NCBI GenBank assembly: GCA_021794835.1
Contig: JAJYQA010000015.1
Coordinates: 1 to 32,475 of the forward strand
Source: Actinomycetes bacterium
GTDB taxonomy: Bacteria; Actinomycetota; Aquicultoria; Aquicultorales; Aquicultoraceae
Length of the DNA stretch: 32,475 nt
Direction of reading: 5' to 3'
Shown: positions 20,247-32,475 of the stretch, piece after piece
Numbering within the stretch: position 1 is the first letter of the stretch
Layout: every line of letters begins with the position of its first letter
Position numbers and translations under genes: made by a program
Notes under the pieces: model-generated
What the model was told of the DNA's origin: nothing
Databases searched by the model: none
Seen by the model: the letters and a program-made list of their open reading frames with translations, nothing else

Positions 20247-21323
20247 TTAGGATACGTGAGCCGGGTAGCGATATTTTAGAGGCACGTAATTGCAGAATGG
20301 GTCTTCGCCAAGATAATCACCGTTTATAGAGTATGCTCTGGCCCTACATCCGCCGCATATGTTGTTGTACTCGCATGAGCCACACTTACCCTTATGTTTC
20401 TTAGGGTCTCTGAGCTCCTGAAATAATTCCGAGTTCTCCCATATATCCTTAAATGAATGCTCTTTAAGGCTACCTGCAGCTTTCGGAAGGTAGCTGCACG
20501 GCAGCACGTTCCCATCTACATCGATAAAGGATATTATCTGGCCAACTACGCACCCCTTCGCGCCACCAGTTGAGAATTTGAAGGACCGCCTCTCAAACTT
20601 AAGTCCCTCTTCTTTGGATTTCTGGAACACCACTCGATAATAATGCGCGGCACATGCCGGCCGGACCAGTAAATCGTGCTCTTCTCTTTCCATTCGATAG
20701 TGCCAGCCAAGTATATCCTCATAGTCTTCTCTCGAGATGAGTTCACGTAGCAGGTCTTCGCCTCTTCCGGTTGGGACCACCATGAACATATACCAGGCAG
20801 TTGCACCCAGCTCTTTAGCCAATTTATAAACGTTTGGTATATCATGCTGGTTCCTTTTGGTAAATGAAGAATTTATTATAAATTCGATGCCATGCTTACG
20901 AAATAACCTTGTAGCATTTATTACCCCTTCAAAAGCACCCTTCTGCTTCCTAAAATCATCGTGGATATCGGCGGTTGATCCATCAAGGCTTAGCGAGATA
21001 ACCTTTACGCCGGTTCTTTTAATGTTTTTGCAGACTTCGTCGTTGACAAGTGTTCCGTTTGTTGCGATGCTTAAGCGCACGCCTTTCCGGACAGCATAGT
21101 CGGCGATCTCAAATATATCGTCTCTTAACAGCGGCTCACCACCGGACAAAACAATAACCGGATTTGAATAATCTATTAGCTCGTCGATTATTCTAAGGGT
21201 CTCCTTAGTTGACAAATCTGGATGGCCACTTGTGCTCATCTCGGAGTGAGATCGACAATGAATACAATTCAGGTTGCAACGTCGTGTAATCTCAAGGGCT
21301 ACCCACTTAGGCTTAAACTCCAT
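20247..21323 (-). CDS. Radical SAM/SPASM protein of the AhbD/NirJ (heme) type
   Basis: 358 residues. C16, C20 and C23 (CNLNCIHC) bind the SAM-cleaving [4Fe-4S] cluster, and SGGEPLL (60-66) is the SAM-binding motif. The C-terminal SPASM region has many cysteines ([35 protein letters not shown]). CAAHYYRVV and [20 protein letters not shown] recall AhbD, the enzyme that decarboxylates Fe-coproporphyrin to heme b, and NirJ relatives. The rest of a siroheme-dependent heme pathway is not in this window, so the substrate is inferred. AAGGAAGG lies 6 nt before the ATG. The gene has its own candidate promoter and is bounded by 140-160-nt spacers. Confidence 0.8.
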
Positions 21324-29547: not shown

Positions 29548-29772
29548 TCAAAGTTGTCCTTCATGAAATAGGCTGTAGCTACCAATGAAAACAGCAATGA
29601 TTGCTTCATACATAAGCGTTGCCAAATGCATAACACCAATTGAGTGTTCAAATCTCGTATGGTTTGCGCCGGGATACACCATATCAGTGAACGCAAGCTG
29701 TTTAATTCGGCGTAACCGCTGGAATGCGGAATGGTTGATTATTTGCTTCCCCCAATCGTTGAATGAGATGAA
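29548..29772 (-). pseudogene. N-terminal fragment of an HD-domain phosphohydrolase (dGTPase/SAMHD1-like)
   Basis: A 74-residue open frame without a start codon reads NDWGKQIINHSAFQRLRRIK, then QLAFTDMVYPGANHTRFEHS and IGVMHLATLMYEAI. FQRLRRIKQL, VYPGAxHTRFEHS and GVMHLA are hallmark motifs of the HD superfamily that hydrolyses (d)NTPs. The frame then drifts (IAVFIGSYSLFHEGQL) and stops, so the HD metal ligands further on are lost. The start of the gene is interrupted by TGA at 29775-29773, beside a 14-bp tandem duplication. It is clearly a gene relic. Confidence 0.75.
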
Positions 29773-29779
29773 TCATATA

Positions 29780-29806
29780 TAGCATCTCTTAGATAGCATC
29801 TCTTAG
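29780..29806. repeat. 14-bp tandem duplication
   Basis: TAGCATCTCTTAGA at 29780-29793 is followed at once by a second copy at 29794-29806, complete except for its last base. It adjoins the truncated 5' end of the HD-domain fragment, where the expected first motif of that family should be. This suggests local slippage or an excision scar. Confidence 0.7.
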
Positions 29807-29923: not shown

Positions 29924-31120
29924 TCAATCGTGGCATAACTTTATAGCATACTCTAATTGGTCATCTTGCTGCTTGGTCAACAGATCGACAGTATTATGCA
30001 CCTCCACATCAGGTTCGATCCCTACCTCATTCATAATACTACGATCAGCTGCTAGGTATTTGAACGTTGTCACTTGAAGTTTTGTGCCGTCAAACAAGGG
30101 AAAAATAGTTGCCTCATGCGTCGATCCAGCGGTTTGCTTTCCTACCACACGGATTTTTTTACTGGAACCTTTTAGGGCTCTAATAAATATAAATTCAGCT
30201 GAGCTTGTTGTAAACTCGTCGCAGAGCACGACGATGTTCTTCAAACTTTGTTGAATGCCAGGTAAAGGTCTAACTCGTATTTCCTCACAGATACTTTCGT
30301 TGTTTACCCGATAACCTAAAAGCCTCTCCTCGGTCATAAATAGCGATGTCATATTTATCGTCTCGTTAATTAATCCTCCTTGGTTTCCTCTTACATCAAC
30401 AATAAGTGACGTAATATCACCACACTCCCCCAAAGCTTTAAGAAAGTCGTGAACAATGCTCTTATGCTTAAAAGCAAAGATCTTGATATAGCCAATATCC
30501 GCGTATGCCTTAGCCAAGCATTGGGGAAGTTTTACCTCAGGGGTTATCCCCTCCTTTGCTTGTTCTTGACTAAAAGATATGATATCTTGCTTTGCTATCA
30601 CTTCTGTCTTAATAATATTACCGTCTGTCGCCGTGATCTCAATGGCATCACCAAAATCTCCACGCATGAGTTCATTAATCAAAACTGCTTTTCGCATGCT
30701 TAAAGACGTGAAAGGAAATTGCGTGTAAATAGCATCCCGTATAGTCCCAATTGGTGTACCATTTACTTTAAGAATTTTCATTCCCGCTGTCAGCTTAGAA
30801 GTTTTATTTAACCTAAAGGGAATGTACAAGCCGTCGTCAATATTTACTAAGACCAGAGGATAAAATGATTTTTGAAACCAAGGTGATACAAGTATCCTGG
30901 TATGTGGATCCTTGAGTTCGAGAAGCATTCGATCTATATACTTGTACAAACTGCCATAAGAGCTTATCGTCTCAATATCTTGAAGGTATTTATACTTAAT
31001 GGTTTCCCAATCAACTCCTCTTTCAGCGAAAAGAGGGTATTTTTCGTTTACGAGCTTCCAGATCTGCAAGATTATATCGATTCGCGCCTCTTCAACTGGA
31101 GGGATCTCCACAATATGCAT
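29924..31120 (-). CDS. Cytoplasmic S41-family peptidase beside a radical SAM enzyme
   Basis: 398 residues with no signal peptide or membrane helix, unlike most periplasmic CtpA/Tsp proteases. N-terminal helical region with the family motif LKDPHTR (69-75), a PDZ-like segment (LTAGMKILKVNGTPIG, 110-125), then the S41 core: VDVRGNQGG (241-249), the probable nucleophile S306 in TTSSAEF, GKQTAGS (327-333), and GIEPDVEV (367-374). The lysine of the CtpA-type GKG motif is not conserved (AGS instead), which points to a tricorn/IRBP-like subgroup or altered catalysis. It starts 11 nt after the radical SAM gene; TAGGAGGT overlaps that gene's stop, so translation is probably coupled. A role in cleaving a modified peptide is inferred. 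Confidence 0.85.
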   Translation of the reverse strand: MHIVEIPPVEEARIDIILQIWKLVNEKYPLFAERGVDWETIKYKYLQDIETISSYGSLYKYIDRMLLELKDPHTRILVSPWFQKSFYPLVLVNIDDGLYIPFRLNKTSKLTAGMKILKVNGTPIGTIRDAIYTQFPFTSLSMRKAVLINELMRGDFGDAIEITATDGNIIKTEVIAKQDIISFSQEQAKEGITPEVKLPQCLAKAYADIGYIKIFAFKHKSIVHDFLKALGECGDITSLIVDVRGNQGGLINETINMTSLFMTEERLLGYRVNNESICEEIRVRPLPGIQQSLKNIVVLCDEFTTSSAEFIFIRALKGSSKKIRVVGKQTAGSTHEATIFPLFDGTKLQVTTFKYLAADRSIMNEVGIEPDVEVHNTVDLLTKQQDDQLEYAIKLCHD

Positions 31121-31131
31121 AAATTGACCTC

Positions 31132-32469
31132 CTATTCGGATTGGGTAGAGCTAATCGGAACGGCTGAAAGTTTACGCTCATATTTAAGATTGCAATACTC
31201 AAGACCCTCAATAATGCCCGTAGCCGACACTTCAAGAGCTCTACAATCAAAACAGCCATATCGATAAGCACACCCTTTACACTCTTGCACTTTGTCCTTG
31301 GTTAACCTATGATAATAATCGTACTTACTATTAGCCAGTATGGATATAATGCTCTGATACTTAACATTGCCTAAAACAAGCGTGCGCGACATAATACAGG
31401 GCAATATGTTACCTTCTGCGGTAACCGCTATTCCGTGACCATAGCAGTTATGATATTTTGCAACGTGACAGAATGTAGCCACATCAACCTTTCGTAATGC
31501 TCTTTTTCTGTCATACATGGCTTCAATAAATCGCTCGGAATAGAAATAATTATATGGGACTGGATACAAGTACTCCAATTTCATGTTTTTAGAGCCAGCA
31601 ATAGGAGTGTATCGCATAAATGCATCCTGAACTTCGTCCTCATTAAACCGACTAACAAGATAGCTCAAAGTAAAATTAACACCGCTTGATGCCAGTTGTG
31701 AAATGTTAGCGAAGACGATCTTTTCTGAATTCGGAACTCCTGTAATCTGTTCATATGTTTCACTGCTATTCGCTAATAATTGGACATTAAGCTCCATGTC
31801 ATAAGCCTTAATAACACTTAATATCTCTGTATTTAGCAACGTGCCATTAGTAAACACCATGATATTTTGTATACCTTGAGATCTGATATAAGACGCTAAC
31901 TCTTGGATGTCATTAATTCTCAAGAGAGGTTCCCCGCCAATGAACGTAATTTGTTTACACCCAAGTTTGGCAATCTGCCCAATAATATCCTTCCAGATAT
32001 CAATATCAGCTATAATACTCTCTGTTTTCCAACGTTTGCACCCCGTTTTTCGAAATAGCACATTGTCGTTCTTCCTGCAAAATACACAATCGAAATTACA
32101 GGTGGTATCAAGCTCTAAAAACGCGTTGCTAAGTAAATAGTTTGGAGGCATGATTTGTTCCATTTGCGGATGAATCCCAATATAAAATTTATCGATGTAG
32201 ACAGGGGCATTATGGTACATACCTACATTCCTATGGAACAGCTCGTCAAGAAAAGCTTTGTCTAATGCTTCTACTTGATTAAGTGGAGTATTGTTTTCAC
32301 ATTGTTTCAAGAAATTGTATTTATTGATATCGATTGCCAGCATATCTCCCGATCGCGCCCATATAATTCTGTAAAAAGGTTCATTTAAAGATGGGTTGAA
32401 AATGAGCCACCGTTCCTCAAGAATAGAAGTTACGACACTACTATTATAGGAGGAATAACGATGGCTCAA
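31132..32469 (-). CDS. Radical SAM/SPASM peptide-maturase-like protein, start uncertain
   Basis: About 445 residues from a TTG at 32469; the frame is open to the window edge, so the 5' end may be missing. Residues ~15-100 resemble a PqqD-like peptide-recognition region (RWLIFNPSLNEPFYRI, AIDINKYNFL, FLDELFHRNVG), although this is weak by eye. The radical SAM core has C124, C128 and C131 (CNFDCVFC) and GGEPLL (178-183). The C-terminus is a cysteine-rich SPASM region (FCHVAKYHNCYG, ILPC, ECKGCAYRYGCFDCRA, EYC) for auxiliary Fe-S clusters. This architecture fits enzymes that crosslink or otherwise modify ribosomal peptides. No precursor peptide is visible; one may lie upstream, beyond the window. 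Confidence 0.85.
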   Translation of the reverse strand: MSHRYSSYNSSVVTSILEERWLIFNPSLNEPFYRIIWARSGDMLAIDINKYNFLKQCENNTPLNQVEALDKAFLDELFHRNVGMYHNAPVYIDKFYIGIHPQMEQIMPPNYLLSNAFLELDTTCNFDCVFCRKNDNVLFRKTGCKRWKTESIIADIDIWKDIIGQIAKLGCKQITFIGGEPLLRINDIQELASYIRSQGIQNIMVFTNGTLLNTEILSVIKAYDMELNVQLLANSSETYEQITGVPNSEKIVFANISQLASSGVNFTLSYLVSRFNEDEVQDAFMRYTPIAGSKNMKLEYLYPVPYNYFYSERFIEAMYDRKRALRKVDVATFCHVAKYHNCYGHGIAVTAEGNILPCIMSRTLVLGNVKYQSIISILANSKYDYYHRLTKDKVQECKGCAYRYGCFDCRALEVSATGIIEGLEYCNLKYERKLSAVPISSTQSE

Positions 32470-32475
32470 GAAAAG

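What the first reader, a model, noticed from the sequence alone, without database searches (positions are those of the whole stretch)
29924..32469. Radical SAM/SPASM maturase coupled to a leaderless S41 peptidase: possible undescribed RiPP system
Seen: the two genes are 11 nt apart with the second ribosome binding site overlapping the first stop codon, so they are expressed together. The maturase has CxxxCxxC, GGEPLL and a multi-cysteine SPASM end, plus an N-terminal region that may be a PqqD-like recognition domain. The peptidase lacks a signal peptide. Known: SPASM enzymes often modify ribosomal peptides, and such peptides need a leader-removing protease. Inference: the pair modifies and then cleaves a peptide encoded upstream, outside the window. 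The flanking gene relics and the AT-rich look (by eye) suggest an acquired module.
Basis: partly seen in the sequence, partly recalled or inferred. Interest (0 to 1): 0.75.

Follow-up and report, generated by a model that had tools for sequence, protein, structure and literature searches.

The report
Broken half of a thuricin-CD-like cluster
The two genes are the surviving tail end of a gene cluster that makes a two-part, cross-linked peptide antibiotic like thuricin CD; a jumping gene has cut into it, removing the enzyme's front end, and the peptide genes are not found in the assembled genome.

Summary
The gene pair is real: a radical SAM/SPASM enzyme followed 11 nt later by an S41 peptidase. 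Its 5' end is misread. The last 125 bases of the window (32351-32475) are the end of an IS256-family insertion sequence, repeated at 100% identity at eight other contig ends. It supplies the called TTG start and the first ~42 codons and causes the contig break. An intact relative in Candidatus Aquicultor secundus (same family) shows the original operon: two short precursors (MEIIN...VGG...Cx3Cx3C), a TrnC-like radical SAM enzyme, the window's enzyme (54% identical, with 30 extra N-terminal residues), and the S41 peptidase. A Bacillota-side genome matching the published Caldicellulosiruptor thuricin-CD-like cluster has the same order. The system is therefore a thuricin-CD-type two-component sactipeptide cluster, a kind predicted since 2011, here in Actinomycetota. 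In the window's genome it is broken: the N-terminus is cut off, and no TrnC homologue or precursor was found in the 97.8%-complete assembly. 'Undescribed' and 'functional pair' are not supported. The main interest is the new host lineage and a TrnD-like enzyme with a full seven-cysteine SPASM domain.

The parts
32351..32475 (+). End of an IS256-family (Mutator-type) insertion sequence. The outer end is at 32351 (...TATATGGGCGCGATC read on the minus strand). The transposase start codon opens ATG 32461-32475 on the plus strand with SD GGAGGAA; the contig breaks inside the element.
   Evidence: 100% identical 124-126 bp at 8 other contig ends, each followed by different sequence; 1355-bp relative copy with Transposase_mut 5.5e-92 in G007; 8-9 bp target duplications at other copies
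32343..32350 (-). Expected 8-bp target duplication of the insertion, GGGAGATA; no matching left junction found in the assembly
31132..32350 (-). TrnD-like radical SAM/SPASM gene, 5'-truncated by the IS; first native ATG at 32343 (403 codons); catalytic motifs intact
32077..32100 (-). CNFDCVFC, radical SAM CxxxCxxC motif
31192..31446 (-). Seven-Cys SPASM region: Cx10Gx4C ... Cx2Cx5Cx2C ... C
29924..31120 (-). S41 peptidase, 398 aa, intact, no apparent signal peptide; conserved His73 (DPHT) and Ser306/307 (TTSSAEF); no Lys at the CtpA position

Best explanation
The pair is the 3' half of a thuricin-CD-type two-component sactipeptide operon (precursor 1, precursor 2, TrnC-like maturase, TrnD-like maturase, S41 peptidase), interrupted by an IS256-family element that replaced the first ~30 codons of the TrnD-like gene. 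In intact relatives, by analogy with thuricin CD, the two radical SAM enzymes act as a complex: the TrnC-like enzyme forms Cys-S to alpha-carbon bridges on the Cx3Cx3C core, the TrnD-like enzyme helps bind the leader, and the S41 peptidase most likely removes the leader near the GG motif. In the window's genome the TrnC-like gene and the precursors were not found and the leader/partner-binding end of the TrnD-like enzyme is cut, so the pathway is most likely dead. Shown: homology, gene order, truncation, absence of the partners from the assembly. Inferred: the chemistry, the peptidase's role and loss of function.
For: Repeat end at nine contig ends in all, with target duplications proving transposition at other copies. 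Homology of the window ORF to the intact orthologue starts at GDM, one codon inside the IS edge, and all six aligned relatives carry 27 or more further N-terminal residues. Intact operon with two GG/Cx3Cx3C precursors in Ca. Aquicultor secundus and the same order in G601, whose peptides match the published Caldicellulosiruptor kristjanssonii description. The TrnC-like Cys pattern Cx11Gx4Cx35Cx2Cx5Cx2Cx16C almost equals that of TrnC. Own-genome searches: no orthologue of the first radical SAM enzyme and no precursor, while the same profile finds G007 and G601 at 1e-21 to 1e-23. Removing the N-terminal RRE of TrnD abolishes cross-linking (PMC12093266).
Against: The rest of the ORF and the S41 gene have no stops or frameshifts, so they may have been used until recently or still be used. 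The assembly is fragmented by the same IS, so an upstream piece could be missing (97.8% complete). A start at ATG 32343 could give a 403-aa protein. TrnD itself has a three-Cys twitch domain, whereas this enzyme has the full seven-Cys SPASM.
Confidence: 0.88

Rival explanations
1. The truncated maturase and the peptidase are still functional, read from the IS-supplied start or from ATG 32343, acting on peptides encoded on a piece missing from the assembly.
For: Open frames and intact catalytic motifs in both genes; contig broken by the IS; in thuricin CD the TrnC enzyme alone keeps weak activity.
Against: About 30 N-terminal residues present in every aligned relative are gone; deletion of TrnD's RRE abolished cross-linking; no TrnC-like gene or precursor found; no left IS junction carries the matching duplication.
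Confidence: 0.1
2. The S41 peptidase is a self-protection or resistance protease, like the nisin resistance protein, rather than a leader peptidase (a rival about this one part; compatible with the cluster identification).
For: Weak sequence relation to NSR (4y68, E 8e-6); TTSSAEF resembles TASSAEM and His73 could match the Ser-His dyad type; Murphy et al. leave immunity open.
Against: No apparent signal peptide or membrane anchor, so it should be cytosolic, where it could not easily meet external peptide; gene order precursors-maturases-S41 kept in both close clusters.
Confidence: 0.2
3. The pair serves a non-peptide pathway (cofactor or enzyme activation).
For: Best NCBIfam profile scores of the window enzyme are generic (MoaA, AhbD) and far below cut-off.
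Against: Intact orthologous operons carry two peptide genes and a peptide-maturase-type radical SAM enzyme.
Confidence: 0.02

Closest known systems
Thuricin CD cluster of Bacillus thuringiensis (TrnA, TrnB, TrnC, TrnD, TrnE; PMC12093266, PMC3132745)
   Same: Two GG/Cx3Cx3C precursors, two unlike radical SAM enzymes in the order TrnC-TrnD, then a C-terminal-type protease; TrnC Cys pattern nearly identical
   Different: The window has only the TrnD and S41 parts, the first truncated; the Aquicultor TrnD-like enzyme has a full seven-Cys SPASM instead of the three-Cys twitch reported for TrnD
Caldicellulosiruptor kristjanssonii thuricin-CD-like cluster, Calkr_0220-0226 (PMC3132745)
   Same: Same gene order and peptide layout (GG at 14, first Cys at 19); G601 radical SAM proteins 38-41% identical
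   Different: Bacillota host; dedicated ABC transporter adjacent; in G601 the S41 gene is itself interrupted by a transposase gene
Huazacin / thuricin Z type (e.g. Ruminococcus albus 7 plasmid pRUMAL03)
   Same: Two precursor copies and tandem TrnC-like and TrnD-like enzymes
   Different: Only about 24% identity for the TrnD-like enzyme, longer peptides with extra Cys, no S41 gene in the stretch read
Nisin resistance protein NSR (S41)
   Same: S41 family, TxSSAE motif and a possible Ser-His dyad
   Different: NSR is membrane-associated and acts on external lantibiotic; this one has no apparent export signal

Membership tests
Thuricin-CD-type two-component sactipeptide cluster (window genome) | Two precursors with GG leader end and Cx3Cx3C core | tested here: not met
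   Profile of four precursors finds none in G000 (best E 0.27) but finds G007 and G601 at 1e-21 to 1e-23; assembly gaps remain possible
Thuricin-CD-type two-component sactipeptide cluster (window genome) | TrnC-like radical SAM/SPASM enzyme | tested here: not met
   Only distant radical SAM proteins in G000
Thuricin-CD-type two-component sactipeptide cluster (window genome) | TrnD-like radical SAM enzyme with its N-terminal recognition region | tested here: not met
   Orthologue present (54% identity) but its N-terminal ~30 residues are replaced by IS sequence
Thuricin-CD-type two-component sactipeptide cluster (window genome) | S41-type peptidase directly downstream of the TrnD-like gene | tested here: met
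Thuricin-CD-type cluster (intact relative, Ca. Aquicultor secundus) | Two GG/Cx3Cx3C precursors, then TrnC-like, TrnD-like and S41 genes | tested here: met
   L030:759-5494
Thuricin-CD-type cluster (intact relative, Ca. Aquicultor secundus) | Three-Cys twitch domain in the TrnD-like enzyme | tested here: not met
   Full Cx10Gx4C...Cx2Cx5Cx2C...C present; the Cys are also aligned in the other relatives
Thuricin-CD-type cluster (intact relative, Ca. Aquicultor secundus) | Sactionine (S to alpha-carbon) bridges in the product | not testable with these tools
   needs mass spectrometry or NMR
PqqD/RRE domain in the window enzyme | N-terminal winged helix recognised by profile or fold | tested here: inconclusive
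   No Pfam PqqD hit; AlphaFold pLDDT 47; TrnD's own RRE is reported as non-canonical

The most novel reading that the evidence does not exclude
Aquicultoria (Actinomycetota) carry a branch of two-component sactipeptides in which both maturases keep a full SPASM domain and may both be catalytic, unlike thuricin CD where only TrnC's radical chemistry is essential, and in which a cytosolic Ser-His S41 peptidase removes the leader.
Probability: 0.35. Interest if true: 0.45.

Novelty: new member of a known kind. Interest (0 to 1): 0.28.

Why it matters
It extends thuricin-CD-like clusters to Actinomycetota (two of 396 sampled genomes of the phylum, both in one family), shows such a cluster being lost through an insertion sequence, and gives a TrnD-like enzyme with a complete SPASM domain to compare with the auxiliary TrnD of thuricin CD. 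It also warns that an ORF running into a contig end can borrow its start from a mobile element.

Tried and rejected
Precursor inside the window: a scan of all frames for GG plus C-rich small ORFs gave only one chance minus-strand frame elsewhere in the window, with no resemblance to the precursors. Upstream half on another contig: no left IS end carries GGGAGATA, and no TrnC-like gene or precursor was found in G000. AlphaFold models of the TrnD-like enzyme and of the S41 peptidase were too poor to use (pLDDT 47 and 49), so no fold search was run. Plasmid searches gave only the distant R. albus cluster as a tandem of both enzymes. The one genome-contig scan gave the Aquicultor contig and four distant radical SAM loci. 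Viral contigs: no relative of the S41 peptidase. A TATAAT-like hexamer in the IS just upstream of the gene was not called as a promoter by the scan (its 15-bp spacer is outside the scan's rule); not used as evidence.

Full report
What is there. The window ends with two minus-strand genes: a radical SAM/SPASM ORF called at 31132-32469 and an S41 peptidase at 29924-31120, 11 nt apart, with the second ribosome binding site overlapping the first stop. Motifs CNFDCVFC, GGEPLL and a seven-Cys SPASM end are present. The S41 protein has no apparent signal peptide. The pair is poorer in G+C (38-40%) than window bases 1-28000 (45.6%).

The start is not native. The last 125 bases of the window occur at 100% identity at eight other contig ends of the same genome, always ending in TATATGGGCGCGATC and then running into different sequence. 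A related copy of 1355 bp in genome G007 has inverted ends and a Mutator-type (IS256-family) transposase. Two other insertions in the window's genome can be paired by 8 and 9 bp target duplications. So the window stops because of a repeated insertion sequence; on the plus strand its transposase starts at 32461. The TTG start at 32469 and the first ~42 residues of the called maturase are insertion-sequence DNA read in the antisense direction.

What was cut off. The closest relative, in G007 (Candidatus Aquicultor secundus, contig PFFU01000125.1; Actinomycetota, class Aquicultoria), is 54% identical, and the similarity begins at Gly-Asp-Met, the first native codons of the window gene. All six other aligned relatives have 27 or more further residues there, with a shared Y...(C/A)(I/L)Y(N/D) block. 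The window gene has lost this end. From the first native ATG (32343) 403 codons remain, with all catalytic Cys.

The intact operon. In G007 the order is: peptide MEIINNTTQNDQVGGWPACAFFCTAACVVSLVYTTVALVSYAL (L030:759-890), peptide MQIINKEVAEEQVGGGLTCLGSCALTCFFFGPEASLFGALWYFV (L030:965-1099), a 504-aa radical SAM/SPASM enzyme, the 436-aa orthologue of the window enzyme, and the 406-aa S41 peptidase. The first enzyme falls among Cys-rich-peptide and sactipeptide maturases (CcpM 1e-71, RumMC 9e-57, below the curated cut-offs). A Bacillota-side genome, G601, has the same order plus an ABC transporter. Its peptides (CLIACVGGC at Cys19; a second with CWLGCGSFC) and its 421-aa second enzyme match the published description of the Caldicellulosiruptor kristjanssonii thuricin-CD-like cluster (PMC3132745). 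The name Caldicellulosiruptor for G601 is an inference from that match. Ruminococcus albus 7 plasmid pRUMAL03 has a more distant version annotated with huazacin-family peptides.

How it most likely works. [quoted passage not shown] TrnC's radical chemistry is essential and TrnD's is not; deleting the N-terminal recognition region of either abolishes cross-linking (PMC12093266). The Cys spacing of the G007 first enzyme (Cx11Gx4Cx35Cx2Cx5Cx2Cx16C) is almost that of TrnC (Cx11Gx4Cx36Cx2Cx5Cx2Cx14C). By analogy the pair of enzymes installs S-to-alpha-carbon bridges on each Cx3Cx3C peptide and the S41 peptidase removes the leader; the second point is only inferred, and Murphy et al. also leave immunity open. 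The peptidase has conserved His73 (DPHT), Ser306/307 (TTSSAEF) and His335 in three relatives and lacks the Lys of CtpA-type enzymes, which resembles the Ser-His arrangement of the nisin resistance protein (PMC4698656); no residue was tested.

State in the window's genome. A search for the first enzyme found only distant radical SAM proteins. A precursor profile found nothing (best E 0.27), although it finds both intact clusters at 1e-21 to 1e-23. No left insertion-sequence junction carries the expected duplication GGGAGATA. The upstream half is deleted or missing from a 97.8% complete assembly. The identical insertion-sequence ends suggest recent spread (inference), which fits the still-open frames.

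Distribution. Of 396 genomes sampled across the phylum only these two carry the enzyme; of 398 genomes sampled from the phylum of G396 four do, one of them close. The patchiness and low G+C fit horizontal acquisition but do not prove it.

Known or new. The parts and the order are those of a kind described in 2010-2011. New here, as far as the searches show, are the Actinomycetota host (a paper search found no report for this species) and a TrnD-like enzyme with a full seven-Cys SPASM, whereas TrnD is reported to have a three-Cys twitch domain. The finding is a remnant of a known kind of system, not an undescribed one.

Noticed in passing
L056:7017-8300 (G601:C1 about 149516-150800): In the Caldicellulosiruptor-like cluster the S41 gene is also interrupted, by a different (DDE_Tnp_1) transposase gene; a second, independent insertion into the same type of operon.
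   Followed up: partly
window 20247-21323 (-): A second radical SAM/SPASM gene, closest to heme b synthase AhbD (416 bits, cut-off 500) and TIGR04053; unrelated to the peptide system.
   Followed up: partly
window 29590-29780 (-): Broken gene fragment that looks by eye like an HD-domain hydrolase; Pfam gave no hit to a 48-aa piece.
   Followed up: partly
L058:3960-7760 (G577:C25): Another two-peptide cluster (MRMLKVISNGEVMPDGGWICWAGCIGGCAAGC... and MYTVTSDTAISPDGWLCAIICGAGCAAGC...) with TrnC-like and TrnD-like enzymes and ABC transporter genes, without an S41 gene nearby.
   Followed up: no
L045:1029-4026: Cloacimonadota MAG: radical SAM/SPASM gene overlapping an ABC transporter gene, a possible unrelated peptide cluster.
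   Followed up: no
G000 contigs C2, C6, C14-C16, C18, C19, C23, C24, C26, C34-C37, C41 (ends): Recent, nearly identical copies of one IS256-family element break much of the assembly.
   Followed up: partly
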